This document shows positions 1,264-32,577 of a stretch of 35,261 nucleotides of DNA, piece by piece. Numbering within the stretch: position 1 is the first letter of the stretch; every line of letters begins with the position of its first letter. A program made the translations under genes and the position numbers. The notes under the pieces were generated by a model. That model made no database searches, was not told the DNA's origin, and saw nothing but the letters and a program-made list of their open reading frames with translations. The stretch is from Myxococcales bacterium (GTDB lineage: Bacteria; Myxococcota_A; Polyangia; Polyangiales; Polyangiaceae): NCBI GenBank assembly GCA_020430845.1, contig JAGQJA010000057.1, positions 1-35,261 on the forward strand, read 5' to 3'.

Positions 1264-1446
1264 GCCGTCTGCGCTTCAAGGTTCGTTCCATGATCCCGTC
1301 GCACATCCAACCACCTGCGGAACCACACGAATGGGCGCAGAAAAGACGCTTCGAGCGCCTCGTCGCGCGCCGAGGGCAACGCGGACTGATGGAGCGGGCA
1401 CTCGGATCCGGTGATCCACGAGCCGTCCGGCGCTACGCTCGCGCCG
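1264..1446. promoter_or_regulatory. divergent intergenic region, kinase / FHA regulator
   Basis: 183 bases separate the two divergent start codons and must hold both promoters. On the plus strand TACGCT (1434-1439) lies 7 bases before the ATG at 1447. I see no equally clear hexamer for the kinase direction and no obvious operator. Confidence 0.5.
1434..1439 (+). promoter_or_regulatory. -10-like hexamer, leaderless start of FHA regulator
   Basis: TACGCT is followed by 7 bases and then ATG at 1447, so transcription would start at or next to the start codon. No Shine-Dalgarno sequence precedes this ATG. One member of a window-wide pattern. Confidence 0.45.
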
Positions 1447-2730
1447 ATGAGCGAGGCCACCGTCCGCGCGCCCAAGCGCGCCCTCACCGTCCTCAAGGAG
1501 CCCGCCTTCCACCTGCGCGTGCAGCAAGGGCCCGACGCGGGCACCACGTTCGTGCTCGAGGGCACCCAGGCGCCGCGCGTGCTGCTCGGCACGAGCCCCA
1601 CGTGCGACTTTCGCATGACGGATCGGCGTGTCTCCCGCCGTCACCTCTGCCTGGAGCTCGTGGGGGGCGCGGTGCGCGTGACGGATCTGGGCTCGACCAA
1701 CGGCACGACGATCCGCGGCGTATCGATCCGCGAGGCGACGCTGCGTGGTGACGAGACGTTGGAGATCGGCGACACCGTCATACATGTGGGCATCGACGCG
1801 GAGGGCGCAAAGCCCTTCATCTCGGACGCGACGGGCTTCGGGCGACTCGTCGGTCACAGCGTCGCGATGCGGCGCCTCTACCCCACGTTCGCCAAGCTCG
1901 CCGCCAGCGACGTGCCGGTGGTGATCGAGGGCGAGACCGGCGTGGGCAAGGAGCTGCTCGCCGAGTGTCTGCACGAGCAGGGCCCGCGCGCCGAAAAGCC
2001 GTTCGTCGTGTTCGACTGCGCCGCCGCCACGCAGGGCGAGGGCGCGCTGCGGGCCGCGGTCGCCGAGGCCGAGGGCGGGACGCTCGTGCTCGACGAGATC
2101 GCCGAGCTCGACGCGGCGCTCCAGCCGCTGCTCTTGCGCGCCGTCGACAAGGGCGAGCTGCAGCGCGCCGACGGAAGCGTCGATCGCATCGACGTGCGCT
2201 TCATCGCGACCACGCGCCGCGATCTCGATCGCGAGGCCGAGGCCGGGCGGGTGCGTGACGATCTGTACTTTCGACTCGCCGTCGCGCGCGTCGAGATCCC
2301 CCCGCTGCGCCAGCGCGCCGAGGACATCCGCGTGCTCGCCCTCCACTACTGGGCGGCGCTCGGCGGCGCCGAGGCCGGCATGCCCGCGAGCGCGCTCGCG
2401 CGCTTCGAAGCGCACAGGTGGCCGGGCAACGTACGAGAGCTCGAGAACGCCGTCTCCCGCGTCGTGACCCTGGGCGAAGCGTTGCCCGAGCGGGCGAGCA
2501 CCCAGACGCCCGCGGCCGCGCCGACGACGGGCGGCGACTACCTCGACCGCGTGATCGGTGAGGGCCTGCCCCTCACGCGCGCGCGAGAGAAGGTCGTCGA
2601 CGAGTTCGAGCGCCGCTACGTCGAGGCAGCGTTCGAACAGAACGAGCGCAACGTCACCAAGGCGGCCGCAGCGTCCGGCATCGCGCGGCGTTACTTCCGC
2701 GCCCTGCGCGCGCGCCAGCGCTCGAGCTGA
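1447..2730 (+). CDS. FHA - AAA+ (bEBP-type) - Fis regulator lacking GAFTGA loop
   Basis: Transcription regulator of 427 residues. Order: N-terminal FHA domain (about residues 20-110; VSRRH and DLGSTNGT motifs, the phosphothreonine-binding loops); an AAA+ domain of the bacterial enhancer-binding family (Walker A GETGVGKE near 162, Walker B LVLDEI near 213-218, then DDLYFRLAVARVEIPPLRQR and WPGNVRELEN); and a C-terminal Fis-like helix-turn-helix (NVTKAAAASGIARRYF). Family members contact sigma-54 through a GAFTGA loop between Walker A and B. Here the stretch from GETGVGK to DEI is 57 residues against about 74 in NtrC, and the whole ESELFGHEKGAFTGA region is missing. ATP binding looks intact, but ordinary sigma-54 activation is unlikely. 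The ATG at 1447 is preferred over the in-frame GTG at 1411 because it begins right before the conserved part and follows a -10-like hexamer. It is divergent from a Ser/Thr kinase, a plausible source of the phosphothreonine signal. Confidence 0.92.
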   Translation: MSEATVRAPKRALTVLKEPAFHLRVQQGPDAGTTFVLEGTQAPRVLLGTSPTCDFRMTDRRVSRRHLCLELVGGAVRVTDLGSTNGTTIRGVSIREATLRGDETLEIGDTVIHVGIDAEGAKPFISDATGFGRLVGHSVAMRRLYPTFAKLAASDVPVVIEGETGVGKELLAECLHEQGPRAEKPFVVFDCAAATQGEGALRAAVAEAEGGTLVLDEIAELDAALQPLLLRAVDKGELQRADGSVDRIDVRFIATTRRDLDREAEAGRVRDDLYFRLAVARVEIPPLRQRAEDIRVLALHYWAALGGAEAGMPASALARFEAHRWPGNVRELENAVSRVVTLGEALPERASTQTPAAAPTTGGDYLDRVIGEGLPLTRAREKVVDEFERRYVEAAFEQNERNVTKAAAASGIARRYFRALRARQRSS

Positions 2731-2788
2731 CGTCGGCTCGGCGCGATCCCACCGGCGTCGGCGCGCCCATGGGGTGTGCGTTCACCAC

Positions 2789-2808
2789 GCGTCACCCGCG
2801 GGTGACGC
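2789..2808. promoter_or_regulatory. 20-bp perfect palindrome
   Basis: gcgtcacccgcgggtgacgc reads the same on both strands without a loop. It lies 59 bases after the stop codon of the FHA regulator and about 300 bases before trpE. A loop-free palindrome fits a dimeric regulator's operator better than a terminator, and no T tract follows. The binding protein is unknown. Confidence 0.5.
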
Positions 2809-2890
2809 CGCGCGCCGCAGCTCCTCGCATTTGTGCGCAGATTCGCGCTCGAGGAGCGGGCACGGCCGTTGCTCTATGCGAAGGCGTGAA

Positions 2891-2929
2891 CGGCGGTCTC
2901 GCAAAACGGCTCCCCCATGCGGACCGCCG
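2891..2929. other. inverted repeat in trpE leader
   Basis: CGGCGGTC (2891-2898) and GACCGCCG (2922-2929) are perfect 8-base arms around a 23-base loop. On a transcript through the leader they could pair, upstream of the stronger hairpin at 3019-3059. Confidence 0.35.
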
Positions 2930-3018
2930 GCGCGAGCGGGTCGTCGCTCTCGGAGCGCTCTCCATTCCAGGGGGAGACGCGCGCCCGGGGTCGAACGACC
3001 GCTCGCGTGTCGATCACA

Positions 3019-3059
3019 CCAACGCGCCGCGCGGAGATGGGCCCCGCGCGGCGCGTTGG
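3019..3059 (+). promoter_or_regulatory. 16-bp perfect hairpin upstream of trpE
   Basis: The arms 3019-3034 and 3044-3059 are perfectly complementary over 16 bases, with a 9-base loop (agatgggcc). The hairpin ends 53 bases before the trpE ATG. It lacks the following T tract of an intrinsic terminator. It could be an attenuator-like or protein-binding RNA structure, or the end of an upstream transcription unit. Confidence 0.55.
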
Positions 3060-3112
3060 GACGGTCGACGGCTATAGGCGAGAGCGGGCGCGTTTGGTAC
3101 GACGTGGCGACC

Positions 3113-4546
3113 ATGAGCGCCACCACGGTCACGCGAACGCTCGTCGCCGATGGGCTGACCCCGGTGCGCGCCTACGCGGCCCTCCGCGCCGCGGCTCCCG
3201 AGTCGGCGTCGTTCCTGCTCGAGAGCGTCGTCGGCGCAGAGCGATGGGGACGCTACAGCGTGCTCGGCTATCGCCCGCGCTGGGAGGCGACACTGCACCG
3301 CGACGGGTGGAAGGTCGAGCCCGAGGAGATGGGCGCGCGTCTCTCTCCCGACGGAGACGCCATCGCGCAGATCCGCCCGCTGCTCGACGACGGCGGGCCG
3401 GCGGCGCGCCCCCACGAGAGCACCGCCGAGCGCTTCGCCGGCGCACACGTGGGCTACCTCGCGTGGGACATCGTCCACCTCGTCGAGAAGGTCCCGCCCG
3501 GCGCCGACGACACGTGGAGCGATCACTACGTCCCCATCGCGCGCCTGCTCGGCGGCGCGACCGTGGTGGTGTTCGACGGGCTCACGCAGACGGTCACCGT
3601 CGCGGGCCCCACGGCCGAGGACGTCGACCGGGCGATCGCCGACATGCGCGCCGACGTCACGCTCCGCGACATCCGCGTCCCCGATCGCTCCGACCTCCCG
3701 CGCCAGGTCCGCACCGACCTCGACGACGCCGCGTTCAAGGAGCGCGTGCTCCGCGCCAAGGAGTACATCGCCGCCGGCGACGCGTTCCAGATCGTCGTCG
3801 CGCGCACGTTCACCGTTCCGCGCGAGGGTCGCGATCCGTTCGACGTCTACCGCGCGATGCGCGTGCTCAACCCTTCGCCGTACATGTACTACCTCGACTT
3901 TCCGGCGAAAGAAGGCGTCCCGCCGCTCCAGATCGCGGGCGCGAGCCCCGAGACGATGGTGCGCCTCGACGCCGGGCAGATGACGGTGCGACCGCTCGCC
4001 GGCACGCGCAGGCGCGGCGCGACCGACGAAGAGGACGCCAAGCTCGCCGAAGAGCTCCTCGCCGATCCCAAGGAGCGCGCCGAGCACGTCATGCTCATCG
4101 ACCTCGGCCGCAACGACGTGGGGCGCGTGGCCGAGACCGGCTCGGTCACGATGGTCCGGCAGATGGAGATCGAGCGCTACTCGCACGTCATGCACATCGT
4201 GAGCGAGGTGCGCGGGCGCGTCCCCGAGGGCACGCCTCCGCTCGAGGTCCTCCGCGCGGCCTTCCCTGCCGGCACGCTCTCGGGCGCGCCCAAGGTGCGC
4301 GCGATGCAGATCATCCGCGAGCTCGAGGCGCGGCCGCGCGGCATCTATGGTGGCGCCATCGGCTACGTGACGGCCTCGGGAGACCTCGACTTCGCGATCG
4401 CGATCCGCACGCTCATCTGCAAGGGCGAGCAGCTCGAGGTGACGGCAGGCGCAGGCATCGTCGAGGCGAGCGATCCGCAGGCCGAGGCCGACGAGACCCG
4501 CACGAAGGCGCGCGGCGTGCTCTGCGCGATCGAGGCGGCGGGGTGA
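3113..4546 (+). CDS. trpE: anthranilate synthase component I
   Basis: Converts chorismate plus ammonia (from glutamine through TrpG) to anthranilate, the first step of tryptophan synthesis. The protein has 477 residues. Motifs: LLES near the N-terminus (the tryptophan feedback site of TrpE), GASPE, PLAGTRRRG, LIDLGRNDVGRVAETGSV, FPAGTLSGAPKVRAM and GIYGGAIGYV. PLAGT rather than the PIKGT of PabB favours TrpE over aminodeoxychorismate synthase. The ATG at 3113 is chosen because homology begins just after it; the frame is open further upstream, but that part is Arg-rich and not protein-like. No trpG, trpD or trpC follows: the next gene encodes a DUF1513 protein and overlaps the last bases. A long leader with a strong hairpin precedes the gene, so leader-based control is possible. 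TACGAC lies 9 bases before the ATG, a weaker candidate for a near-leaderless start. Confidence 0.95.
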   Translation: MSATTVTRTLVADGLTPVRAYAALRAAAPESASFLLESVVGAERWGRYSVLGYRPRWEATLHRDGWKVEPEEMGARLSPDGDAIAQIRPLLDDGGPAARPHESTAERFAGAHVGYLAWDIVHLVEKVPPGADDTWSDHYVPIARLLGGATVVVFDGLTQTVTVAGPTAEDVDRAIADMRADVTLRDIRVPDRSDLPRQVRTDLDDAAFKERVLRAKEYIAAGDAFQIVVARTFTVPREGRDPFDVYRAMRVLNPSPYMYYLDFPAKEGVPPLQIAGASPETMVRLDAGQMTVRPLAGTRRRGATDEEDAKLAEELLADPKERAEHVMLIDLGRNDVGRVAETGSVTMVRQMEIERYSHVMHIVSEVRGRVPEGTPPLEVLRAAFPAGTLSGAPKVRAMQIIRELEARPRGIYGGAIGYVTASGDLDFAIAIRTLICKGEQLEVTAGAGIVEASDPQAEADETRTKARGVLCAIEAAG

Positions 4547-5601: not shown

Positions 5602-5638
5602 GCCTCGCCCGGAGCGAGCCGATCGCCCGCGCGAGCCG

Positions 5639-6994
5639 TCAGCTGCCGAGGCAGCCGAGGAGCACGTCCACCTTCGCGTTCGGATCGGCCTGCACCGCCG
5701 TGCACTGCGCGGGGCAGAGGCGGATCTCGGTCGGCGCCGCGTTGTTGTCGTAGTACCAGCCGTTGGCCACGCACGCGGCCTGGTTCGTGACGCGGGTGAG
5801 CTTCTGCGCGGGCGGGACGCCGTTGGCGCGGTACTCGACGGTGACGTTGTCGGGGTTGATGATGCCCGCGTCCGTCGTGGGCATCGCGTACGTGCAGCCC
5901 ACGGCAGACGCCTGGATCTGCTTGAGGGCCTCGGCGAACACGGCGCCGTTTCCGTCGCCGACGTTCCAGTGCTTGCACGTCCCGGCGCCGTTGCCACACG
6001 TGTTGGTGATGCCGCCGATGTTGCTCGCATGGCTCGGCGCGTTGCCGCCGCCCGCGATCGTCTCGAGGCGATCGAACGACGCGCCGGTCATGCCGATGAC
6101 GAACGTGCGGATGCCCGTCGCCGTGAAGTGCGCCTGCAAGATGTCGCGGAGCGTGTTGTCGTTCGTGTTGCAGGTCTGCGGGTTGCCGTCGGTGATCAGG
6201 ATGCCGATGGTGATGCGCCCCGCGCGCTGGTTGACGGCGCGCCCGGTGAAGCCGGTGATGCCGCGCAGCGCGCCCTCGGTGGGCGTGTTCGTGCTGGGGC
6301 TGTGGCTGTTGAGCGACGAGTCGAAGACGTTGGACGGCAGCGTGACGTAGCCGTTGCCCGCGGCGGGGATCTCGGCGGTGTTGTAGCCCGAGCCGTTGGA
6401 GCACGAGGCGCCGTTCAGCGCGAAGTATTGGAGCGCCGCGCCGTTGCCCGTGGCGCCGGCGGACTTGAAGTAGCTCGAGAGCGCGTTGATCGCACGACAC
6501 CACTTGGAGGCCGTGTTCTGTCCGATGTTGCAGTCTGTGCCCATGCTGCCCGACTGGTCGAGCATGACGAACATGTCGAGCGGCTTGAGCGTGGCCGTCG
6601 CCGACGTCTGCGCGCACGCCGAGTCGCCTGTGAGGGAGCTGTCTCGCACCGGCGCGTCGTAGGTGAACTGCACGTCGGGCAGGTTGGCGTCGACCCCGCC
6701 GCTCGACCCGCTCGACCCGCTGCTGCCGCTCGACCCGCTAGAGCCGCTGCTGCCGCTCGACCCGTCGGCGCCGCTCGATCCGCTCGACCCGCTGGTGCCA
6801 CTCGACCCGCTCGTGCCACTCGACCCGCTCGTGCCGCTCGACCCGCTGGCGCCGCTCGATCCGCTCGAGCCTCCCGCGTCGTCGCCGGTCGCCCCGGTCT
6901 CATCACTGCTGCCGCAACCCGCGGCTGCCGTCGATGCGACGACACCCGCGAGCGAGGCCGTCGCCAACACTCGCGTGACCCAAGTACGCCCCAT
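5639..6994 (-). CDS. vWA-domain lipoprotein, Ser-Gly linker
   Basis: Predicted outer-envelope lipoprotein of 451 residues. Signal peptide with lipobox STAAAGC near residue 26; then a low-complexity linker of Gly-Ser-Ser triplets (about residues 42-100); then a von Willebrand factor A domain with the MIDAS motif DQSGSMGTD; and a Cys-containing C-terminal part (GCTYAMP, WYYDN, LCPAQC, LLGCLGS). vWA domains bind protein ligands through a metal ion. The C-terminal part is clearly paralogous to that of the divergent gene at 7059: both have an IGC/VGC-Y or F-x-hydrophobic-P start, a GWxY segment, an LCxxxCT segment and a final LGC. Together they form a duplicated pair. The ATG at 6994 sits 7 bases after TATCAT with TTGAGA 16 bases further up, suggesting a leaderless transcript. 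The ligand and role are unknown. Confidence 0.9.
   Translation of the reverse strand: MGRTWVTRVLATASLAGVVASTAAAGCGSSDETGATGDDAGGSSGSSGASGSSGTSGSSGTSGSSGTSGSSGSSGADGSSGSSGSSGSSGSSGSSGSSGGVDANLPDVQFTYDAPVRDSSLTGDSACAQTSATATLKPLDMFVMLDQSGSMGTDCNIGQNTASKWCRAINALSSYFKSAGATGNGAALQYFALNGASCSNGSGYNTAEIPAAGNGYVTLPSNVFDSSLNSHSPSTNTPTEGALRGITGFTGRAVNQRAGRITIGILITDGNPQTCNTNDNTLRDILQAHFTATGIRTFVIGMTGASFDRLETIAGGGNAPSHASNIGGITNTCGNGAGTCKHWNVGDGNGAVFAEALKQIQASAVGCTYAMPTTDAGIINPDNVTVEYRANGVPPAQKLTRVTNQAACVANGWYYDNNAAPTEIRLCPAQCTAVQADPNAKVDVLLGCLGS
6697..6870 (-). repeat. minisatellite coding the Gly-Ser linker
   Basis: Degenerate 9- and 18-base units built from ccgctcgac and ccgctggtg-like words, coding Ser-Gly-(Ser/Thr/Ala) triplets in the minus-strand lipoprotein. 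Such arrays can change length by slippage without breaking the frame. Confidence 0.8.
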
Positions 6995-6997
6995 GTG

Positions 6998-7029
6998 TAG
7001 AATGATACCCGGGCGGTAACGCTTCTCAA
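6998..7029. promoter_or_regulatory. overlapping divergent promoters of the vWA pair
   Basis: Minus strand: -35 TTGAGA (plus-strand 7024-7029), 16-base spacer, -10 TATCAT (7002-7007), then 7 bases to the ATG at 6994. Plus strand: GTGACC at 6975-6980, 17-base spacer, -10 TAGAAT at 6998-7003, for the gene at 7059. The two -10 boxes share bases, so the two promoters should compete for polymerase. Confidence 0.6.
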
Positions 7030-7058
7030 AGAAGCGCGAGCGTGGAGGAGGCAGAAAA

Positions 7059-8346: not shown

Positions 8347-10149
8347 TCACCCCGTCGAAGGCAGGCGCCCCGACTCGCGCGGCGGCTCGTTGGGCACCGA
8401 CTCGACGCGCACGTCGACCTCGAGCGTCTCGTCTCCGCCGCCCACGTAGATCGTGCCGGCGGTCGGCGTCGTGTCGATGTAGTTCCGCCCGACCGCGACG
8501 CGGATGTGCTCGGTCTGCGTGACGACGCCGTTCGTCGGGTCGAGCCCGCGCCAGCCGACCTCGGGCAGGTACACCTGCACCCACGCGTGCGACGCCTGCG
8601 CTTGCTCGATGTTCTGCACGGCCGCGCCGGGGTGCACGTAGCCGCACACGTAGCGCGCGGGCACGCTCAAGAGGCGCGCGAGCGTGATGAGCAGCTCGGC
8701 GAAGTCCTGGCACACGCCGCGGCGCTTGACGTACGTGTCGAACGCCGTCGTGTGCACGGTCGTGACGCCCTGCACGTACTCGTACTCCGTGAAGATGGTG
8801 CGGTTGAGGTCGAGCAGCGTGTCGACGAGGTCGTAGTCGTTGCGCTCGACGAAGCTCATGGCGTACTCGCTGAGCTCGGCGAGCTGCGTGTGCGGGAGCT
8901 CGGTGGGCAAGAGGTACGGCTGCAGGATCTGGCGCTGCCACGGCATCCACACCATGGGCAGCGCGTGCCGCGAGTGCACGGCGCCGTAGCTCACGAGCGG
9001 GTCGGTGTCGCTCACGTAGACGCGCGAGCGGCTCACGATCGAGAGCTCGGTGAACGGCGTCTCGATGAGCAGCCCGCGCACGCGGTTGCCGAAGACGTCC
9101 TCGTACTCGCGCTCCTGGCCGTCGACCGAGACCTCGACCTTGTGCGAGAGCAGCGCCTGCTGCCGGTCGATCATGGGCGTGAGGCGAAACACGTGCGAGC
9201 TGCGCTCGATGGGCTTGTTGTACGTGTACGTCGTGCGGTGGGTGACGTTGTACGTGTGCGGCTCGGCCACGGCCGGACGCAGGATCTTGATGCCGAGCGC
9301 CGAGATCTTGGACGGCTGGTCGCGCTTGACCCCGCGCACGCGCGCGCGGATGGCGCCCTGACGGATCACGAGCATCTCGCCGGGGGGCACGGCCTCCCAC
9401 TTGGCGTCGATGTCCGAGTGCGGGAGCAGCGGCGACGAGCTGATGAGCACGCCCTTGCGGCTCTTGATGCCGCGCTGCGTGAGGTCGATCGTGAGATCGT
9501 CGTCGCCGACGATGACCTCGCCGTAGGGCGGCAACATCTGCCAGATGTGCATCGCGCCGTCGCCGCGGCGGTCTGCGTAGACGACGAGATCGTGCCCGTC
9601 GGTGAGCACCGTGCTCATGCTGCCGTGGTCGTTGAGCTCGTCGAGCCACGCGCAGAGCAGGTCGGCCGGGATGTCGCCGATGCTCCGGTAGCCCAGGTCT
9701 GCCGCGCGGTTGAGCAGCTCGCAGAAGATGAGCTCGGTGTCGGTGGCGCCCACCGGCTCGAAGCGCGGCGTGGCGACCATGTCGAGGCCCGTCGCGCTCA
9801 GCTCGAAGCGCTCGCGGAGCGAGCCGGAGTGCGCGATGAGCCAGTCGCGTCCGGCGAGGCTGCGCACGAAGGGCTGCGTGTTCGCGAGCGTGTTCTGGCC
9901 CCACGTCGCGCTTCGGATGTGGAGCACGAAGAGCGACGACTCGAGGTGATCCCAGGCCTTGACCAGCTCGCCGCGCAGGCTGCCGTGGGTGGGCGCGGGC
10001 TCCTTGAGCACGGGGGCCGACGGCTCACCCGCGGGGTAGTACCCGATGCCCCACCCGTCGGGGAGCAGGCCGCGCCCCTTCTCGAGGCAGCGCAAGTCGA
10101 ACGACGGCGCGAGCATACCCTCGAACGACATCGCGAAGAGGTTTGGCAT
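8347..10149 (-). CDS. class II amidotransferase-like / transglutaminase fusion
   Basis: Two-domain protein of 600 residues. Residues 1 to about 250 resemble class II (Ntn-type) glutamine amidotransferases of the YafJ/GATase_4 type: LFAMSFEG, LLPDGWGIGYYP, HIRSATWG, NTQPFV and LIAHSGSL. From about 285 to the end lies a bacterial transglutaminase-like module (TYNVTHRTTYTYN start of the N-terminal region; core triad Cys480 in RRGVCQDFAEL, His521 in ASHAWVQVYL, Asp537 in GLDPTNG). The triad is complete, so a thiol peptidase, ligase or transferase activity on peptide amides is plausible. In active class II amidotransferases the nucleophile is Cys2; here the protein begins Met-Pro-Asn-Leu, so the nucleophile is absent. 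No better upstream start with Met-Cys is seen. It is the last gene of an operon with two histidine kinases, 11 bases after the preceding stop; TAGAAT 8 bases before the ATG could give an additional leaderless transcript. Appears cytoplasmic: no signal peptide. Confidence 0.88.
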   Translation of the reverse strand: MPNLFAMSFEGMLAPSFDLRCLEKGRGLLPDGWGIGYYPAGEPSAPVLKEPAPTHGSLRGELVKAWDHLESSLFVLHIRSATWGQNTLANTQPFVRSLAGRDWLIAHSGSLRERFELSATGLDMVATPRFEPVGATDTELIFCELLNRAADLGYRSIGDIPADLLCAWLDELNDHGSMSTVLTDGHDLVVYADRRGDGAMHIWQMLPPYGEVIVGDDDLTIDLTQRGIKSRKGVLISSSPLLPHSDIDAKWEAVPPGEMLVIRQGAIRARVRGVKRDQPSKISALGIKILRPAVAEPHTYNVTHRTTYTYNKPIERSSHVFRLTPMIDRQQALLSHKVEVSVDGQEREYEDVFGNRVRGLLIETPFTELSIVSRSRVYVSDTDPLVSYGAVHSRHALPMVWMPWQRQILQPYLLPTELPHTQLAELSEYAMSFVERNDYDLVDTLLDLNRTIFTEYEYVQGVTTVHTTAFDTYVKRRGVCQDFAELLITLARLLSVPARYVCGYVHPGAAVQNIEQAQASHAWVQVYLPEVGWRGLDPTNGVVTQTEHIRVAVGRNYIDTTPTAGTIYVGGGDETLEVDVRVESVPNEPPRESGRLPSTG

Positions 10150-10157
10150 GTGGGACC

Positions 10158-10163
10158 ATTCTA
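10158..10163 (-). promoter_or_regulatory. -10-like TAGAAT overlapping HK stop codon
   Basis: On the minus strand TAGAAT is followed by 8 bases and the ATG of the amidotransferase/transglutaminase gene. Its first three bases are the TAG stop of the upstream histidine kinase. A candidate internal leaderless promoter. Confidence 0.45.
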
Positions 10164-17205: not shown

Positions 17206-17211
17206 TAGCGT
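17206..17211 (+). promoter_or_regulatory. -10-like TAGCGT, leaderless start
   Basis: TAGCGT is followed by 6 bases and ATG at 17218. There is no Shine-Dalgarno sequence in that space. Confidence 0.4.
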
Positions 17212-17217: not shown

Positions 17218-17769
17218 ATGACGCATCCCGCGCCCACGTGCCCCGCGTGCGGGGGTCTGGCGACCAACCCGAGCGCGCCGATGTGTCGGTTCTGTGGTGC
17301 GCAGATGCACGCGCCGCCTGCGCACGCGAGCCTCGCGCCGCAGGGTCCCGGCTACGCGCCGCAGGGTCCCGGGTACGCGCCGCAGGGCCCCGGCTACGCG
17401 CCGCAGGGTCCCGGCTACGCGCCGCACCAACAACAGCAACAACAGCAACAGCAGCAAGGCTACGCGCAGCCCCAAGGGCCCGGAGGCTACGGCGCGCCGC
17501 TCTACCCGCAGCAGCAGGGCTACGCGCAGCCTCAGCCGTACCCGCAGCCGGGCTACCACCCTCCGCAAGGCTACGCGCAGCCGCCCGTGGCCGGCTTCGG
17601 CGGCGCAGCGCCCGTGCAGCCGTTCGGCGGCGCCTACCACAGCCACGTCGACCGCGGCTGGTGGGGCTCTTCGTTCGGCACGTTCTTCTGGGCGCGCCTC
17701 GCCATCGCCGCGATCGCGATCGGCGTCTCGCTGATCATCGCGTGCGTGTCGGCGATCGCCAACGGTTGA
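17218..17769 (+). CDS. zinc-ribbon membrane protein with PQGPGY and poly-Gln repeats
   Basis: Protein of 183 residues. N-terminal zinc-ribbon: CPACGG (Cys near 8 and 11) and CRFCG (near 24 and 27). Then four exact seven-residue repeats APQGPGY, a run of ten Gln, further Tyr/Gln/Pro/Gly-rich sequence (YAQPQ, YPQQQGYAQPQ), and a single hydrophobic segment near the C-terminus (about 158-178, ARLAIAAIAIGVSLIIACV). The layout, a small metal-binding head, a flexible Pro/Gln/Gly/Tyr linker and a tail anchor, fits a membrane-tethered cytoplasmic zinc-ribbon protein. Low-complexity Tyr/Gly/Gln sequence of this kind can favour condensation or adhesion, but that is speculation. The function is unknown. 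Confidence 0.82.
   Translation: MTHPAPTCPACGGLATNPSAPMCRFCGAQMHAPPAHASLAPQGPGYAPQGPGYAPQGPGYAPQGPGYAPHQQQQQQQQQQGYAQPQGPGGYGAPLYPQQQGYAQPQPYPQPGYHPPQGYAQPPVAGFGGAAPVQPFGGAYHSHVDRGWWGSSFGTFFWARLAIAAIAIGVSLIIACVSAIANG
17335..17418 (+). repeat. four 21-bp tandem repeats
   Basis: Unit gcgccgcagggtcccggctac occurs four times (17335, 17356, 17377 and 17398) with one or two synonymous changes, coding Ala-Pro-Gln-Gly-Pro-Gly-Tyr each time. Confidence 0.9.
17428..17457 (+). repeat. CAA/CAG microsatellite (ten Gln codons)
   Basis: Ten consecutive CAA or CAG codons in an otherwise GC-rich gene. Mixed codons reduce slippage compared with a pure triplet run. Confidence 0.9.
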
Positions 17770-19344: not shown

Positions 19345-20160
19345 TCACTCGACGGTGCACTCGAAGTCGTCGAGCCGCGCGCGCACGTGAGGGTCGTCGG
19401 TGTCCCCGGTCTCGCCGAGCCTCACCGCGACGGGCAAGTCACCTCCCGCGACGACCGGGACCGGCGTGGTCGTCGCGCCGAGCGTGACCTGCGCGCTCAC
19501 GCCATCGCTGCGGAGCGTGACACGCGCCCATGTGCCGACGGGGAACGTGCCCACGGGCGTGATGACCTCGGTGCCGCCGTCGCCGCCGACCTCGGAGTGG
19601 TACTCGAGCGTGGGCGGGTTGGTGCCGGCGACCTTGAGATAGATGACCGGCTGCCCAGCGCCCGAAGCCCGCATCGAGAGGAACTCGAAGTCCGTGCCCG
19701 GGCTGGGTGGCGCGATCTCGACGTTGATGCTCACCGAGCAGCGGATCGCGCCGGGGATGACCGCGAACGAGCGCTGGAGGTAGGCGCGGCGAATGGAGGT
19801 CCCCGTCAGGTCGAGGACGAGCGCGTTGGGCGGCGACAGCCCACCCGCGCCGAGCGTGAGGGATCCGCTCGACGACACGGTCTTCGAGTCCCACATCGCG
19901 CCGAGCGGCGGCGTGTCGAAGTCGTCGCAGAACGTCGCGCCGCACACGCGCGGCGCCGCGTCGAGGCCGCTGTCGGGCGGAACGGTCCCCGAGGACGACC
20001 CGTCGGACGGCGCGGTGCCGTCGACGCTCACGTCCGGCGTCCCCACCTCGCGCGCAGCGTCGGGCGGATCCGCGACGCCCGCGAGATCGCCGGTCTCGAC
20101 GAGGAGCGAGCAGGCGGAGAGCGCGACGGCTCCGACGACGATGAAGCGTCCGTGACCCAA
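19345..20160 (-). CDS. lipoprotein with lectin-like beta-sandwich region
   Basis: Predicted lipoprotein of 271 residues: short signal peptide MGHGRFIVVGAVALSAC with lipobox LSAC, an Asp/Pro/Ser-rich linker (about 25-70), then CGATFCDDFDTPPLGAMW and a beta-rich domain. The phrase CDDFD followed by a Trp-containing strand recurs in myxobacterial lipoproteins with a concanavalin/LamG-like fold. Also seen are FEFLSMRASGAGQPVIYLKV, GTWARVTLRSDG and the closing ARLDDFECTVE. A carbohydrate- or protein-binding surface role is inferred. The start is TTG at 20160; it gives the only good signal peptide and is preceded by TACGTT at a 6-base distance, so it may be leaderless. The next in-frame Met is too far downstream. 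Confidence 0.78.
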   Translation of the reverse strand: MGHGRFIVVGAVALSACSLLVETGDLAGVADPPDAAREVGTPDVSVDGTAPSDGSSSGTVPPDSGLDAAPRVCGATFCDDFDTPPLGAMWDSKTVSSSGSLTLGAGGLSPPNALVLDLTGTSIRRAYLQRSFAVIPGAIRCSVSINVEIAPPSPGTDFEFLSMRASGAGQPVIYLKVAGTNPPTLEYHSEVGGDGGTEVITPVGTFPVGTWARVTLRSDGVSAQVTLGATTTPVPVVAGGDLPVAVRLGETGDTDDPHVRARLDDFECTVE

Positions 20161-20166: not shown

Positions 20167-20172
20167 AACGTA
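20167..20172 (-). promoter_or_regulatory. -10-like TACGTT before TTG start
   Basis: On the minus strand TACGTT, 6 bases, then TTG at 20160. It supports the unusual TTG start as a leaderless one. Confidence 0.4.
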
Positions 20173-20212: not shown

Positions 20213-20809
20213 CTACTTACCCGCGTCGAGGCGAGCCAGGTGTGCTTGGATGATGGCGCGCATGCGGGCATCGGCGGCGGCGACGCGTTTGGGATCGCCC
20301 TTCGCCCCTGGCGCGAGCGACGCGGCCGCGGCGCGCGTGCCCGACACGGCGACGAGATAGACGTTGCCCGGCTCGGGTCCCACGCCGCGCGCGATCTGTC
20401 CGGCGATGTCCTCGGCCCACGCGACGCTCTCGGGCGACGTGGGCTTGCCCGCCGGCGCGCTCGCGCTCATCGAGAGGCGCATGAGCAGCGTCGCGCCAGC
20501 GCCGGGGAGCTTCTCACGCGACGACGCGGGCAAGAGCCCGATGAGGCGCGCTTCTTCTGCAGCGACATCCTTGGGCACATCCGTCGCAGGCGCCGGAGCC
20601 GGAGGCAACGACGCAGACACACCCGCACCCGCACCCGCACCCGCACCCGCACCCGCAGGCGCAGACGCACCCGCAGTCGCAACCGCAGACGCAACCGCAG
20701 ACGCAGACGCACCCGCAGACGCACCCGCAGACGCCTCCGGCGCGGGCGTACGATCGCACGCGACGGAGAACGCGGCGAAGGCGACGAGATACGACAGGGA
20801 CACGCGCAT
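20213..20809 (-). CDS. small lipoprotein with Ala/Gly/Ser low-complexity linker
   Basis: Lipoprotein of 198 residues: MRVSLSYLVAFAAFSVAC signal with lipobox SVAC, then about 50 residues of Ala/Gly/Ser/Pro coded by hexanucleotide-like repeats, then a mostly helical domain of about 120 residues (VPKDVAAEEARLIGLLP, SVAWAEDIAGQIARGVG, ADARMRAIIQAHLARLD). No known family recognised. ATG at 20809 is chosen over an in-frame start 15 codons upstream because the signal peptide begins there and TAGGAT lies 7 bases before it. It is divergent from the TonB-C-like lipoprotein gene with 67 bases between starts; both starts look leaderless. Confidence 0.82.
   Translation of the reverse strand: MRVSLSYLVAFAAFSVACDRTPAPEASAGASAGASASAVASAVATAGASAPAGAGAGAGAGAGVSASLPPAPAPATDVPKDVAAEEARLIGLLPASSREKLPGAGATLLMRLSMSASAPAGKPTSPESVAWAEDIAGQIARGVGPEPGNVYLVAVSGTRAAAASLAPGAKGDPKRVAAADARMRAIIQAHLARLDAGK
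20611..20730 (-). repeat. acccgc / gcagac hexamer minisatellite
   Basis: Six consecutive acccgc-type units followed by mixed gcagac, gcaacc and gcaccc units. They code the Ala-Gly and Ala-Ser linker of the lipoprotein. In-frame multiples of six make length change tolerable. Confidence 0.8.
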
Positions 20810-20816
20810 TGCGCCA

Positions 20817-20822
20817 ATCCTA
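20817..20822 (-). promoter_or_regulatory. -10-like TAGGAT, leaderless start
   Basis: On the minus strand TAGGAT, 7 bases, then ATG at 20809. Confidence 0.42.
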
Positions 20823-20864
20823 TGCCGGAGAGCGAGATCGGATCCAACCGCCACGCGCGAGGGC

Positions 20865-20870
20865 TACGAT
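20865..20870 (+). promoter_or_regulatory. -10-like TACGAT, leaderless start
   Basis: TACGAT, 6 bases, then ATG at 20877. It faces away from the equivalent element of the divergent lipoprotein gene 42 bases upstream. Confidence 0.42.
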
Positions 20871-20876
20871 GAAGCG

Positions 20877-21428
20877 ATGCGCCGCCTGGCTTCCGCGCTG
20901 CTCGTCCTCACTCCTCTCGCGGCGGCGGCGGGGTGTGCCGACACCGCGGCGGCGGGCGCTCCCGCGGTCCGTGGCGGAGGCCCCGTGGCGCGCGCGACGC
21001 TCGTCGAGGGGTGGGGATGCACCGACACGCAAGCCGGCGTCGTCGAGGTGCCCGCGCACTGCGCGTGGCCGCCCGCCCTCTCACGCGCGCAAATCTTGTC
21101 CGCGGACGTCCAGGTCGTGGCGAGCGTCGGGCCGCGCGGAGAGGTCGTCGACGTGAGGATCGTGCGTGGCCCGCCCGACGGCAAGTTCGACGAGGCGGCG
21201 CTCGCGTGCGCTCGCCGCGTGAAGTACCGCGTGCCGGCGACGTGGACGCAAGGCGCGGCGTCCGCGGACACGTGCCCGCTCACGCTTCGGCTCGCGCGCT
21301 ACGTCACGGACCTCGATCCGAATGGCTTCGACAATTCACTCTGCCCCGCGACATCGCCAGCGTCAGCGTACATGCCCAACGGGACCGGTCCTGGCGGCGC
21401 CGCCCCGACCCAGTACCGTTGCCCGTGA
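20877..21428 (+). CDS. lipoprotein with TonB C-terminal-like domain
   Basis: Lipoprotein of 183 residues. Signal MRRLASALLVLTPLAAAAGC with lipobox AAAGC. The central region VVASVGPRGEVVDVRIVRGP, then FDEAALACARRVKYRVPATW, has the strand-helix pattern of the TonB C-terminal domain (the common V-x-G-x-V-xx-V-x-V and FDxAAxxAxxxWxFxPA layout). Unlike TonB it is lipid-anchored, with no N-terminal membrane anchor or ExbB/ExbD neighbours, so it probably does not energise transport; free-standing TonB-C-like lipoproteins are frequent in myxobacteria. Five or more Cys suggest disulphides. It is convergent with the START-like gene (9 bases between stops). Confidence 0.8.
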   Translation: MRRLASALLVLTPLAAAAGCADTAAAGAPAVRGGGPVARATLVEGWGCTDTQAGVVEVPAHCAWPPALSRAQILSADVQVVASVGPRGEVVDVRIVRGPPDGKFDEAALACARRVKYRVPATWTQGAASADTCPLTLRLARYVTDLDPNGFDNSLCPATSPASAYMPNGTGPGGAAPTQYRCP

Positions 21429-25744: not shown

Positions 25745-25760
25745 CAATAGAGTACTATTG
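25745..25760. promoter_or_regulatory. AT-rich inverted repeat upstream of NADAR gene
   Basis: CAATAG-agta-CTATTG, perfect 6-base arms, in a conspicuously AT-rich patch (25745-25769) of the 125-base region between the divergent PhoD and NADAR genes. It contains TACTAT (25753-25758), a possible -10 for the NADAR gene. A regulator binding here would cover the promoter. Confidence 0.45.
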
Positions 25761-25792
25761 ACTTTTAGTCGCCGCCTGTCACGCTGCACGAG

Positions 25793-26338: not shown

Positions 26339-26401
26339 GACGGAGCCGATTGACACCAGCCCTGACGCGTGCGCCGCGCCTGAGCCTTCGACGCGCGAAT
26401 C

Positions 26402-26947
26402 TCACTCGCCGCGGAGGCTCTCGAGCTCGTCTTGCTCTCTGCGAACCAGACACTCACGCGCGATCGGGGCGCCGCTGCCGCGGCCCTGGGCGATATCGCG
26501 CAGGACCGCTGTGGCCCGCGGGTGTGACGCGCCGCAGAGCGCTTCGGTCACGAGGTACGCCACGGGGAGCAGCCCGCCGGTGCAGGCGGCCCGCGTCATC
26601 ACGTCTGTCTCGTCCGAGAAGAGCGGCCTGAGGTGCGCGTAGTAGACGGGCCAGCGGCGCGCGATGTCCACGCCGACGTAGGCGCGGACGATGGGGCTCC
26701 CGTGTCGGGTGAGCGCGGCGTACTCGCGCATCTTCGCCGCGTCGCGCACGGCGTCGAACGCCGCGTACTCGGCGCTCGGGGGGCTCCCCAGCTCGTGCTC
26801 GAACGTGATGACGCTCTGCTGCGCCAGGAGGTCGACGCGGCGTTGCACCTCCGGCCGGAGCCCGAGGTCGACGTTCGACGGACGATGCGCGCAGCCCGAG
26901 GTGATGCACGCCCACACCACGAACCAGACAACGCGTGAGTGGCCCAC
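26402..26947 (-). CDS. small lipoprotein, hypothetical
   Basis: Predicted lipoprotein of 181 residues: MGHSRVVWFVVWACITSGC signal with lipobox ITSGC, then a mainly helical domain (VQRRVDLLAQQSVITFEHEL, EYAALTRHGSPIVRAYVGVDIARR, ATAVLRDIAQGRGSGAPIARECLV). The helix-turn-helix periodicity with small residues at turns resembles HEAT-like repeats, but this is not certain. No family name recognised. The start is GTG at 26947 with TAGCCT 7 bases before it; a strong purine run immediately adjacent is too close to work as Shine-Dalgarno. Confidence 0.72.
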   Translation of the reverse strand: MGHSRVVWFVVWACITSGCAHRPSNVDLGLRPEVQRRVDLLAQQSVITFEHELGSPPSAEYAAFDAVRDAAKMREYAALTRHGSPIVRAYVGVDIARRWPVYYAHLRPLFSDETDVMTRAACTGGLLPVAYLVTEALCGASHPRATAVLRDIAQGRGSGAPIARECLVRREQDELESLRGE

Positions 26948-26954
26948 CTCCCAC

Positions 26955-26960
26955 AGGCTA
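26955..26960 (-). promoter_or_regulatory. -10-like TAGCCT before GTG start
   Basis: On the minus strand TAGCCT, 7 bases, then GTG at 26947. Confidence 0.35.
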
Positions 26961-27017
26961 CGTGCGCGCGCCCGCGAACCTTCCGCGGACCTTCCGCGCT
27001 CGCACGCCCGCGCCCGG

Positions 27018-28709
<1,692 letters not shown>

Positions 28710-28740
28710 GCGGGGCGGGTTACCACGATTCTCCGCCGGG

Positions 28741-30048: not shown

Positions 30049-30146
30049 GAACGATGGACCCGCGAGCGGCCCGCGGCATTCTCGCGGCGCCGACGACGGG
30101 CGCGGCACGTTTTCGCAGGAATGAACGCGGGTTCACCCGCGGCGTA

Positions 30147-30992
30147 TCACTCCGCGACAGTCGCCCACGCGCTCGCGAGCACGGCCTCGTCGCGCTCGGT
30201 GACCTTCATCGAGAGGCCGACCTTGCCGTCGCCGAGCTTCCACCCCTCGGTCGCGAACGTGTCGCCGGGCCACACCGGGCGCCGGAACTGCGCCGAGAAC
30301 GCCGTGATCTTGGTCGCGTCGCCGCCGCATGCCCCGCGCGCCACGTGGCGGACCATGTGACCGAACGTGCACAGGCCGTGCAAGATGGGGCCCTGCGCGA
30401 AGCCGACGTTCGCCGCGAACTCGGGGTCGGCGTGCAGCGGGTTGAGATCCCCCGATAGGCGGTAGAGCAGCGCCTGCTCGGGCGACGTGCCCTCTTCGAC
30501 GCGGAAGTCGGCCGGGCGGTCCTTGGGCATCTCGACCTTGGGCTCCTTGGGGGGCGTCTCACCGCCGAAGCCCCCGGCGTCGCGAAAGATGATCTGCGCC
30601 GTGGTGTCGAACAGGTGGGCGCCTGCGTGGTCGGTCGTGCGCGTGTCGACGAGCACGACGGCGAACCGGCGCATGTCGTAGATGCCGCGGATCGTGGCGG
30701 TCGTCAGGAGCTTTCCGCTGGACGGGATCGTCGCATGTATACGCACGCTCTGGGCCCCGTGCACCACCATCGCGAGGTCTCCGCCCGTGGCGGCCACGCG
30801 GTCGAACATGGGGGCGAACATGGGCACCACGGCGAAGCTCGGGATGACCTTCGGGCCCTTCTTCTCGTAGAGGTAGTCGAGCTCGTCCTTCTTCGCGCCG
30901 ATGCCGAGGGCGTAGAGGGCGAGCGTCTTCCAGTCGTACTCGAAGACCGAAGGGTCGCTGGGCTTGCCCACGAGGGAGGTGTCGAGTGCCAT
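30147..30992 (-). CDS. MaoC-family (R)-specific enoyl-CoA hydratase-like
   Basis: Protein of 281 residues with two hot-dog folds, like the hydratase-2 domain of peroxisomal multifunctional enzyme. The active-site segment YRLSGDLNPLHADPEFA carries the catalytic Asp182, Asn184 and His187, followed by GFAQGPILHGLCTFG, the usual hydratase-2 continuation. The N-terminal fold (FEYDWKTLALYALGIGAKKD) also matches this family. Reaction: hydration of trans-2-enoyl-CoA to (R)-3-hydroxyacyl-CoA, for fatty-acid breakdown or polyhydroxyalkanoate supply. A thiolase is 13 kb away, not in the same operon. ATG at 30992 begins MALDTSLVGKP. Confidence 0.92.
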   Translation of the reverse strand: MALDTSLVGKPSDPSVFEYDWKTLALYALGIGAKKDELDYLYEKKGPKVIPSFAVVPMFAPMFDRVAATGGDLAMVVHGAQSVRIHATIPSSGKLLTTATIRGIYDMRRFAVVLVDTRTTDHAGAHLFDTTAQIIFRDAGGFGGETPPKEPKVEMPKDRPADFRVEEGTSPEQALLYRLSGDLNPLHADPEFAANVGFAQGPILHGLCTFGHMVRHVARGACGGDATKITAFSAQFRRPVWPGDTFATEGWKLGDGKVGLSMKVTERDEAVLASAWATVAE

Positions 30993-31082
30993 GGCGGCGC
31001 AGCATCGCCGCGGGGCGAGGGTCCGTCAATCGGCTCGCGCGCACGCATGTCCGCGGGGTTTCCGGGCCGCGCCGAGGGCGTG

Positions 31083-31088
31083 TATGGT
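31083..31088 (+). promoter_or_regulatory. -10-like TATGGT near SctT start
   Basis: TATGGT is followed by 7 bases and GTG at 31096, an in-frame alternative start of the SctT-like gene. The preferred ATG at 31084 lies inside this hexamer. If transcription starts here, the GTG would be the real leaderless start and the protein 4 residues shorter. Confidence 0.38.
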
Positions 31089-31863
31089 GCGCGGCGTGCT
31101 GGCCCGTGATGCTCTCGTCGCGCTCGCCCCGGGCTCCGGGCTCCTCGCCGAGCTGGCGCGCGCCTCGACCGACGCGGGGGTCGACCTTGGCGGCCTGGGG
31201 CTCGCGTGGGCGCGCGTGGCGCCGACAATCGCGCTCGTCCCCGCGTTCGGGCTCAAGGCGCAGAGCGCGCCGGCGCGTGGGGTGCTCGCGCTCGCGCTGG
31301 CGGGGGCCATCTTTCCGTCCGTACGCCCCGCCCCGCTGGGCGAGGGCGCGTGGCCGCTCCTGTTGCTCGAGCAGGTGCTCCTGGGCCTGCCGCTCGCGCT
31401 CGCCGCAGCGGTTCCGCTCTGGGCCGCGACGATGGCGGGCGGCATGATCGACAACCTTCGCGGGTCGCAGCACGAGGTGCAGCTGCCCATCGTCGAGGGG
31501 CGCGCGTCGTCGCTCGGGGTGATGCTCTCGCTCTTCGCGAGCGCGGTGTTCCTCTCCACGGGCGGCCCGGCGCGCCTGGCCGAGTCGCTCGCGCGCGCGT
31601 CGACGTTCGGCTCGAGCCCGCTGCTCGAGGCCGCGACGTCGCTCACCGCGGGCATCGGCGTCGCGGTGGGCATCGGGGCTCCGCTGCTCGCGGGGTCCGT
31701 CGTCGTCGAGGTCGCGTTCGCGCTCGTCGCCCGCGCCGCGTCGCCCGCGCAGATCCACGCGCTGCTCGCGCCCATCCGCGCGCTCGGTCTGCTCGCGATC
31801 ATGGCGCTCGTGCTCGACCGCATCGCCGCGCTCGTCGCCGTCACCGTGCGCGCCGCGGGCTGA
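31084..31863 (+). CDS. type III secretion export apparatus protein, SctT/FliR family
   Basis: Integral membrane protein of 259 residues matching the SctT (YscT/EscT)/FliR family, which forms part of the export gate of type III secretion systems and flagella. Visible: ARVAPTIALVPAFG (about 43-56), several hydrophobic segments, LWAATMAGGMIDNLRG (112-127, a family hallmark), VQLPIVEGRASSLGVMLSLF and the C-terminal LGLLAIMALVLDRIAAL. Length is normal, no frameshift. No other secretion gene (SctR, SctS, SctU, SctV, ATPase or needle) is in the window, so it is an orphan here. A GntR regulator follows 24 bases downstream. An in-frame GTG at 31096 is an alternative start supported by a -10-like element. 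Confidence 0.87.
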   Translation: MVRGVLARDALVALAPGSGLLAELARASTDAGVDLGGLGLAWARVAPTIALVPAFGLKAQSAPARGVLALALAGAIFPSVRPAPLGEGAWPLLLLEQVLLGLPLALAAAVPLWAATMAGGMIDNLRGSQHEVQLPIVEGRASSLGVMLSLFASAVFLSTGGPARLAESLARASTFGSSPLLEAATSLTAGIGVAVGIGAPLLAGSVVVEVAFALVARAASPAQIHALLAPIRALGLLAIMALVLDRIAALVAVTVRAAG

Positions 31864-31873
31864 CGACGCCGTG

Positions 31874-31879
31874 TATGAT
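31874..31879 (+). promoter_or_regulatory. -10-like TATGAT, leaderless GTG start
   Basis: TATGAT, 8 bases, then GTG at 31888. The context gtgtatgatcggg is similar to gtgtatggtgcgc before the preceding gene, so both genes may be served by like promoters. Confidence 0.45.
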
Positions 31880-31887
31880 CGGGCGCG

Positions 31888-32577
31888 GTGACGTTCCCAC
31901 GCGTTCGACGCGCGCACGCGGCCGACGAGGTCTTCGACGAGCTCGCGCAGCGTATCCTCCGCGGCGAGCTCGTCGCGGGGGACCCGTTGCCGCCCGAGCG
32001 CGCGCTCGGCGAGAGCTTCGGCGTGTCGCGCTCCGTCGTGCGGCAGGCGATCCATCGCCTCGCCGACATCGGGCTCGTGCGCGTGCGCCAAGGCGGCGCG
32101 ACGCTCGTGACCGACGCACGCACGTCGGCCGACCTGCGCGTGATGGAGCTGCGCTACCGGCTCGGCCCGGCGAGCGACGCGGAGCGCGCCGACATGCAGG
32201 AGCGACGCTTCGTGGAAGGGTTCGCGCTGGTGCTCTTCGCGTCGCGCCGCGCCGAGCGCGCGGAGCTCGAGGTCATCGCGCAGCGCGTCGAGGCGTTCGC
32301 CGCGACGCCGGAGCCGACCGTCGAGCAGGTGGACGCGTTCGAGCGGGACGTGTGGACGCGCCTCGCGCGCGCGGGCAAGAACGCCATCTACGAGGCGCAG
32401 ATCGCGTGGTGGAACCGCATCGTCGAAGAGCGGGGGAGCGCGCCGATGCGCGGCTCGATCCCGGGCTCGGCCCGCGTGGCCTTCTACCGCGAGCTCGTGC
32501 GGCGGCTCGTCGCGAACGAGGACGCGCCTCGCTTCTACCTCGACACGCTGACCGACCTCACGCTGCGCGCGCGCTGA
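31888..32577 (+). CDS. GntR/FadR-family transcription regulator
   Basis: Regulator of 229 residues. The N-terminal winged helix-turn-helix (about 10-78) is typical of GntR: VFDELAQRILRGELVAGDPL, LPPERALGESFGVSRSVV, RQAIHRLADIGLVRVRQGG. The C-terminal domain (about 90-225) is helical like the FadR/FCD ligand-binding domain but has few of the FCD metal-binding His residues; only general helices are visible (ELEVIAQRVEAFA, VDAFERDVWTRLARAGKNA). Ligand unknown. GTG at 31888 follows TATGAT at 8 bases and lacks a Shine-Dalgarno. It lies 24 bases after the SctT-like gene, same strand; it could control itself and that gene. It is convergent with the beta-barrel gene (9 bases between stops). Confidence 0.9.
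   Translation: MTFPRVRRAHAADEVFDELAQRILRGELVAGDPLPPERALGESFGVSRSVVRQAIHRLADIGLVRVRQGGATLVTDARTSADLRVMELRYRLGPASDAERADMQERRFVEGFALVLFASRRAERAELEVIAQRVEAFAATPEPTVEQVDAFERDVWTRLARAGKNAIYEAQIAWWNRIVEERGSAPMRGSIPGSARVAFYRELVRRLVANEDAPRFYLDTLTDLTLRAR

What the first reader, a model, noticed from the sequence alone, without database searches (positions are those of the whole stretch)
1434..31888. Recurring TAnnnT hexamer 6-8 bases before start codons: widespread leaderless mRNAs
By eye at least nine genes have TAnnnT ending 6-8 bases before the start codon: 1447 (TACGCT, 7), 6994 minus (TATCAT, 7), 10149 minus (TAGAAT, 8), 17218 (TAGCGT, 6), 20160 minus (TACGTT, 6, TTG start), 20809 minus (TAGGAT, 7), 20877 (TACGAT, 6), 26947 minus (TAGCCT, 7, GTG start) and 31888 (TATGAT, 8, GTG start). 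A tenth fits if SctT starts at GTG 31096 (TATGGT, 7). With about 28 percent A+T the chance of such a hit at a given start is below about one percent, so this is far above expectation among 32 genes. Weaker variants occur at 3113, 15863, 24013, 25667 and 28709. Other genes (7059, 17107, 17950, 22847) have normal Shine-Dalgarno sites. Leaderless mRNAs are well known in Actinobacteria and Deinococcus; I do not know of a systematic description for this lineage.
Basis: partly seen in the sequence, partly recalled or inferred. Interest (0 to 1): 0.78.

Follow-up and report, generated by a model that had tools for sequence, protein, structure and literature searches.

The report
Promoter boxes touching bacterial start codons
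In this relative of the myxobacteria, many genes have the promoter's -10 box placed so close to the start codon that the messenger RNA should begin at about the first letter of the gene; this is a known way of starting genes elsewhere, but one hardly described for this group.

Summary
Observation confirmed. An unguided scan finds 11 of 30 window genes with TAnnnT ending 6-8 bases before an in-frame start, against 1.1 expected. The window lies in an unnamed Myxococcota draft genome. In 582.6 kb of it (window included), with starts chosen without upstream signals, 41 of 459 starts have the motif at 6-8 against 5.0 expected; out-of-frame start codons show no excess. TAnnnT at 6-8 tops an unbiased pattern scan. 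TTG is enriched about 17 bp upstream, as in sigma-70 promoters. In this genome the motif is rare in genes closely following another (1 of 99). It recurs in 4 of 4 sampled genomes of the class, own included, and in one other Myxococcota family; two are borderline and six lack it. Best reading: sigma-70-type -10 boxes of leaderless or near-leaderless genes. Transcript ends were not measured. Leaderless genes are known, and a 2011 survey counted them in 8 of 33 delta-proteobacteria: a new lineage for a known kind.

The parts
1434..1439 (+). TACGCT, -10-like box, 7 bases before ATG 1447 (sigma-54 activator with FHA domain, 1447-2730)
   Evidence: Pfam; coding score prefers GTG 1411
7002..7007 (-). 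TATCAT, -10-like box, 7 bases before ATG 6994 (collagen-repeat/VWA protein, 5639-6994)
   Evidence: coding score prefers GTG 6673
10158..10163 (-). TAGAAT, -10-like box, 8 bases before ATG 10149 (class-II amidotransferase-like + transglutaminase-like protein, 8347-10149)
   Evidence: start agrees with coding score; 6 of 12 relatives carry TAnnnT at 6
17206..17211 (+). TAGCGT, -10-like box, 6 bases before ATG 17218 (no Pfam match, 17218-17769)
   Evidence: coding score prefers ATG 17305
20167..20172 (-). TACGTT, -10-like box, 6 bases before TTG 20160 (no Pfam match, 19345-20160); least certain, because TTG starts show no excess genome-wide
   Evidence: start agrees with coding score; TTG control
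20817..20822 (-). TAGGAT, -10-like box, 7 bases before ATG 20809 (no Pfam match, 20213-20809); divergent pair with 20877
   Evidence: coding score prefers GTG 20578
20865..20870 (+). TACGAT, -10-like box, 6 bases before ATG 20877 (TonB_C match, 20877-21428); divergent pair with 20809
   Evidence: start agrees with coding score
26955..26960 (-). TAGCCT, -10-like box, 7 bases before GTG 26947 (no Pfam match, 26402-26947)
   Evidence: coding score prefers GTG 26920
31083..31088 (+). TATGGT, -10-like box, 7 bases before GTG 31096 (Bac_export_1/SctT-like, 31096-31863); conditional, since ATG 31084 overlaps the hexamer
   Evidence: coding score prefers ATG 31084
31874..31879 (+). TATGAT, -10-like box, 8 bases before GTG 31888 (GntR-type regulator, 31888-32577)
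   Evidence: start agrees with coding score; 3 of 6 relatives have TAnnnT 6-7 before an in-frame ATG
33431..33436 (-).
   Evidence: coding score prefers ATG 33426

Best explanation
The hexamer is the -10 element of ordinary sigma-70-type promoters set so close to the gene that transcription starts at, or within a few bases of, the start codon. The mRNA then has no leader or a very short one, and must be translated without a Shine-Dalgarno site, by direct recognition of the 5'-terminal AUG/GUG. Other genes of the same genome, above all those closely following another gene, use Shine-Dalgarno sites. Shown here: the motif, its spacing, its promoter-like anatomy, its gene context and its recurrence in the class. 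Inferred: the transcript start and the mode of translation.
For: 41 of 459 starts against 5.0 expected, P 1e-23; out-of-frame start codons 15 of 3336 against 16.3. Without the two stretches that overlap the window, 38 of 425. Unbiased scan: TA...T ending 6-8 bases before the start ranks first, ahead of the Shine-Dalgarno patterns. Sharp edge: distance 5 gives 0, distance 6 gives 19, matching a -10 hexamer whose +1 is the start codon. T1 and A2 are needed, T6 preferred. TTG 21-25 bases upstream of the hexamer start (about 17 bp spacer): 13 of 84 chosen starts against 2.8, P 8e-6; 22 of 141 in-frame hits against 4.6, P 4e-9; TAnnnT sites not next to starts share this -35 spacing. In this genome 1 of 99 genes within 15 bases of an upstream gene against 40 of 360 others (Fisher P 6e-4), commonest at gaps of 16-60 bases (18 of 65); four class genomes pooled, 8 of 212 against 76 of 701 (P 0.001). 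Relatives of gene 8347-10149: 6 of the 12 read carry TAnnnT exactly 6 bases before the aligned start. Class recurrence: own plus 3 of 3 others. Positive control D. deserti plasmid 13 of 127 against 2.2; E. coli 50 kb 0 of 42 against 3.2.
Against: No RNA data. No pyrimidine preference at -1 in motif genes (41 of 84, against 155 of 256 SD genes and 329 of 573 others). TTGAC at -35 is rare next to starts (1 of 84). In-frame TTG codons show no excess. The tail at distances 9-12 (23 against 6.7) is not specific: T[CGT]nnnT is also up there (56 against 37.1). SD avoidance (1 of 41 motif genes with an SD-like match) is partly trivial, because the hexamer occupies the SD position. Depletion behind close upstream genes is clear in the own genome but not in each relative (G103 2 of 37, G011 3 of 43, G084 2 of 33). 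A mixture model recovers GnGnTAnnCT with spacer peak 6, but its class proportions are unreliable, since shuffled upstream sequences give sizeable ones too. All 6 motif-bearing relatives come from one family (f7); the two from the window's own family lack it at 6-8. A pooled set of rpsB-neighbourhood loci from the class has 0 of 46. The negative control pSymB has a marginal 6 of 176 against 2.3 at chosen starts, though none over all in-frame starts (8 against 8.8).
Confidence: 0.88

Rival explanations
1. The boxes are true -10 elements, but in most of these genes the codon beside the box is not the real start: transcription begins there and translation begins at a later in-frame codon, behind a real leader. 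(Leaders of 1-5 bases are counted under the best explanation.)
For: The coding score picked another start in 7 of the 11 window genes; the 5 of these that lie downstream of the box-adjacent codon would fit.
Against: Blind start choice itself lands on box-adjacent codons far above chance (41 against 5.0). In 11 of 12 relatives of 8347-10149 the conserved N-terminus begins at the matching codon.
Confidence: 0.08
2. TAnnnT is an AT-rich ribosome-binding signal or unstructured patch that acts in translation, not a promoter.
For: Some bacteria use non-SD start signals, AT-rich in the FCB group (passages of PMC9581028).
Against: A TTG sits at -35 spacing; in this genome the motif is depleted behind close upstream genes, where a translation signal would be needed most (1 of 99); the fixed letters are those of a -10 box.
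Confidence: 0.03
3. Chance or selective picking by the reader among many start candidates in a GC-rich window.
For: About four in-frame candidates per gene give the eye freedom; the window is richer than the genome (11 of 30 against 83 of 459).
Against: Unguided counts with blind start choice reproduce it in the genome sample, with out-of-frame and distance controls flat.
Confidence: 0.005
4. The TA is the stop codon (TAA/TAG) of an upstream overlapping gene.
For: 13 of 41 motif instances begin with TAA or TAG.
Against: 28 of 41 begin with TAC or TAT, and the motif is commonest at gaps of 16-60 bases and occurs ahead of divergent genes (18 of 169).
Confidence: 0.005

Closest known systems
Leaderless genes with TANNNT -10 box in Actinobacteria and Deinococcus-Thermus (Zheng et al. 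2011, PMC3160421; -10-motif paper, PMC12340547)
   Same: Same hexamer, same placement about 12 bases before the start, coexistence with SD genes in the same genome, high-GC form with uninformative middle letters.
   Different: Different phylum (Myxococcota, probably class Polyangia). Ribosomal protein bS21 is kept here, whereas the Thermus, Deinobacterium and Corynebacterium control genomes lack a match.
Leaderless genes in delta-proteobacteria counted in Zheng et al. 2011 Table 2 (8 of 33 genomes, mean 15.8%)
   Same: Very likely includes myxobacterial genomes (my inference), so the phenomenon was probably already detected computationally near this lineage.
   Different: The passages and section I read name no delta-proteobacterial species and do not discuss them; here the signal is traced within Myxococcota, with some lineages positive and some negative.

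Membership tests
Leaderless bacterial genes (TANNNT type) | -10 hexamer ending about 6-8 bases before the start codon, above chance | tested here: met
   41 of 459 against 5.0; window 11 of 30 against 1.1
Leaderless bacterial genes (TANNNT type) | Hexamer looks like a sigma-70 promoter element (a -35 at about 17 bp) | tested here: met
   TTG at 21-25: 13 of 84 against 2.8; sequence evidence only, most sites have no TTG there
Leaderless bacterial genes (TANNNT type) | Found at the first gene of a transcription unit | tested here: met
   own genome 1 of 99 close-following genes against 40 of 360 others; pooled class 8 of 212 against 76 of 701; not clear in each relative alone
Leaderless bacterial genes (TANNNT type) | No Shine-Dalgarno site in front of the gene | tested here: inconclusive
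   1 of 41 motif genes has an SD-like match against 131 of 418 others, but the hexamer occupies the SD position, so partly trivial
Leaderless bacterial genes (TANNNT type) | Primary transcript 5' end at the start codon | not testable with these tools
   needs dRNA-seq or Cappable-seq
Leaderless bacterial genes (TANNNT type) | Leaderless mRNA is translated | not testable with these tools
   needs ribosome profiling, proteomics or reporters

The most novel reading that the evidence does not exclude
Leaderless initiation is a class-wide, ancestral mode in Polyangia-like Myxococcota, gained or kept apart from other Myxococcota lineages, and it runs on ribosomes that retain bS21 and a working Shine-Dalgarno system. 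Intergenic gaps of about 16-60 bases then hold a bare promoter and nothing else.
Probability: 0.45. Interest if true: 0.58.

Novelty: new member of a known kind. Interest (0 to 1): 0.42.

Why it matters
If true, a Gram-negative class that includes predators and antibiotic producers (recalled) begins a sizeable share of its mRNAs at the start codon. The exact-motif excess is about 8% of sampled genes at blindly chosen starts and about 14 hits per 100 genes over all in-frame starts (83 against 16.8 in 459 genes). That would change gene-start annotation (7 of 11 window starts differ from a coding-score call), promoter prediction and heterologous expression in this group. It also gives a natural comparison for how ribosomes start without a leader: bS21 matches in 107 of 108 sampled Myxococcota genomes, but not in the Thermus, Deinobacterium and Corynebacterium controls.

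Tried and rejected
Self-trained gene calls drifted onto the antisense strand in four relatives (G047, G089, G085, G111), which hid their upstream signals. The rpsB/tsf loci (G047, G089) and the top-scoring ORFs read by eye (G085, G111) showed this. I re-called all 14 comparison sets from the own-genome codon model. The results of those four are discarded.

A mixture model was meant to give the leaderless share. Shuffled upstream sequences also gave sizeable class shares, so I use only its motif and spacer.

16S rRNA could not be used: none was found in this draft genome, so the anti-SD end was not read; GGA/AGG/GAG enrichment argues that it works. bS21 loss as a companion of leaderlessness was tested and not found. 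Rfam (gathering threshold) and tRNA scans of the window were empty. Gene 20213-20809 has only weak, partial relatives, so no conservation test was made for it. Ten of the 60 sampled stretches are wholly masked and gave no genes. Paper searches for leaderless with Myxococc, Sorangium, Haliangium and Myxococcota, and for leaderless genes with Deltaproteobacteria, listed nothing on myxobacterial leaderless genes by title or start of abstract.

Full report
What was claimed. One search confirms all nine hexamers, the tenth (31096) and their distances.

Where the window lies. It is the first 35,261 bases of a 65,080-base contig of an unnamed draft genome of 8.56 Mb in 806 contigs, 88.7% complete. 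Its ribosomal protein S2 is nearest to MAGs labelled Myxococcales and Polyangiaceae (77-79% identity). In a tree of 113 S2 proteins it groups with these, and a genome given as the same class (G084) sits beside a Kofleriaceae MAG. I infer class Polyangia of Myxococcota; that name rests on recall plus these labels. No 16S gene was found.

Method. I wrote a gene caller that uses codon statistics and a small start-codon bonus but no upstream signal, so that start choice cannot favour the motif. The own-genome sample is 60 stretches, 606,117 bases; 10 are wholly masked, leaving 582,552 bases and 459 genes with both ends closed, about 7% of the assembly. It includes the window's own contig; without the two stretches that overlap the window the count is 38 hits in 425 genes.

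Window. Over 30 closed genes and 119 in-frame start candidates, 11 genes have TAnnnT at 6-8 bases against 1.08 expected, with 0 at 5 and 0 at 9-12. The coding score agrees with the motif-adjacent start in 4 of 11 genes.

Genome. At chosen starts 41 of 459 have the motif at 6-8 against 5.0 expected (P 1e-23); over all in-frame candidates there are 83 hits in 1930 against 16.8; over out-of-frame start codons 15 in 3336 against 16.3. By gene, 83 of 459 have a candidate with the motif at 5-8, against 21 at the control distances 15-18; ATG and GTG carry the excess, TTG does not (3 of 293 against 5.9). Counts by distance run 5:0, 6:19, 7:10, 8:12, 9:8, 10:6. An unbiased scan of spaced three-letter patterns ranks TA...T at 6-8 first, with GGA, AGG and GAG (Shine-Dalgarno) close behind, so both modes coexist. 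At 6-8, TG, TT, TC, CA, GA and AA in the first two places give no significant excess; TAnnn[ACG] gives a smaller one (33 against 12.0, mostly TAnnnA, 13 against 2.0). The tail at 9-12 (23 against 6.7) is less specific, since T[CGT]nnnT is also raised there (56 against 37.1).

Promoter anatomy. In four genomes of the class pooled, TTG lies 21-25 bases upstream of the hexamer start in 13 of 84 chosen starts against 2.8 expected, and in 22 of 141 in-frame hits against 4.6, peaking at 22-23, a 16-17 bp spacer. TAnnnT sites around gene starts but not 3-14 bases before an in-frame start show the same spacing, with TTGAC 8 against 1.2 in 363, as expected of ordinary promoters. The six bases before the start are GC-rich in motif genes (0.81 against about 0.70). 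Against expectation, there is no pyrimidine excess at -1, and TTGAC itself occurs in only 1 of 84.

Gene context. In the own genome the motif is in 1 of 99 genes that follow another within 15 bases, 18 of 65 at gaps of 16-60, 4 of 109 at longer same-strand gaps, 18 of 169 divergent genes and 0 of 17 at stretch edges. Close-following against the rest: Fisher P 6e-4; 16-60 against longer gaps: P 7e-6; four genomes pooled, 8 of 212 against 76 of 701, P 0.001. In the relatives alone the depletion is weak (G103 2 of 37, G011 3 of 43, G084 2 of 33). The apparent exclusion of SD sites (1 of 41 against 131 of 418) is partly trivial, since both occupy the same bases.

Relatives. Re-called from the own-genome codon model and checked for strand against rpsB/tsf loci in five sets and by reading top ORFs in the rest, the count gives: same family G103 10 of 158 against 2.0; same order G011 12 of 159 against 3.8; same class G084 20 of 138 against 1.4; another Myxococcota family, G049, 6 of 84 against 0.5. 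Borderline: G085 5 of 73 against 1.1 (P 0.005) and G089 4 of 71 against 1.2 (P 0.03). No excess: G047 0 of 78, G111 2 of 85, G038 1 of 66, G004 1 of 66, G007 0 of 73, G113 2 of 132. Controls: Deinococcus deserti plasmid 13 of 127 against 2.2; Sinorhizobium pSymB 6 of 176 against 2.3 but 8 against 8.8 over all in-frame starts; E. coli 50 kb 0 of 42 against 3.2. Each relative is a sample of 100-200 kb, so weak use cannot be excluded in the negatives. Small pooled sets around rpsB gave 1 of 82 for Myxococcia-type loci and 0 of 46 for the class; these are few, homologous genes, and self-trained calls may be poor there.

Conservation. From the matches I read the start regions of 12 relatives of protein 8347-10149 whose match reaches the N-terminus. 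Eleven align at a start codon, and 6 have TAnnnT exactly 6 bases before it (TAGAGT three times, TACAGT twice, TATCGT once) with differing flanks; all six are from family f7. One has TAAGCT at 14. Five have none, among them the row that does not align at a start codon and the two from the window's own family. Of 6 GntR relatives read, 3 have TAnnnT 6-7 bases before an in-frame ATG; in two of these a TTGAC-type -35 can be read 16-17 bp upstream, including a paralogue in this genome (L291) (spacers counted by eye).

Known or new. Zheng et al. 2011 (PMC3160421; passages and section 7) describe TANNNT about 12 bases before starts as the mark of leaderless genes and count 8 of 33 delta-proteobacteria with it. 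A 2025 paper tests the motif by experiment in Deinococcus-Thermus and mentions a survey across the bacterial domain in a supplementary figure that I did not see (PMC12340547; passages and section 11). StartLink (PMC9581028, passages) cites prediction of leaderless transcription in 21.6% of bacterial species. My searches listed no paper on leaderless genes in myxobacteria by title or start of abstract; the library holds open-licence papers only. So this is a known kind in a lineage where it has hardly been described.

Verdict.

Noticed in passing
   Followed up: yes
window 8347-10149 minus; L275-L286: A class-II glutamine amidotransferase-like domain (GATase_4) fused to a transglutaminase-like domain. 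The N-terminus reads MPN or VPN in the window protein and 11 of 12 relatives, where a nucleophile cysteine would be expected at position 2 (recalled), so the amidotransferase half may be inactive.
   Followed up: no
L291 (G000:C772:15880-16080), L289: GntR-type relatives of window 31888-32577 have TTGAC-type -35 boxes, GGTAAC/GTTACC-like sequence between -35 and -10, and the -10 box 6-7 bases before an ATG (read by eye): possible autoregulated leaderless promoters.
   Followed up: partly
phylum sample: Ribosomal protein bS21 matches in 107 of 108 Myxococcota genomes, the window's included, unlike the Thermus, Deinobacterium and Corynebacterium controls; the leaderless-type promoters here coexist with bS21.
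   Followed up: partly
G000 against G035 and G088: This draft genome (8.56 Mb) is about twice the size of its two sampled congeners (4.2 and 4.8 Mb) at 4.4% estimated contamination; GC lay between 0.69 and 0.74 in 46 of the 50 unmasked stretches.
   Followed up: partly
window 20810-20876: Divergent genes 20809- and 20877+ are 67 bases apart, each with a -10-like box next to its start, so two promoters facing away from each other would share one short gap.
   Followed up: no
G047 and G111 samples (L232-L236, L257-L261): Some Myxococcota samples have SD-like sites in over half of genes (53 of 78 and 48 of 85) against 23-34% in the class of the window, so start mode varies in the phylum.
   Followed up: partly
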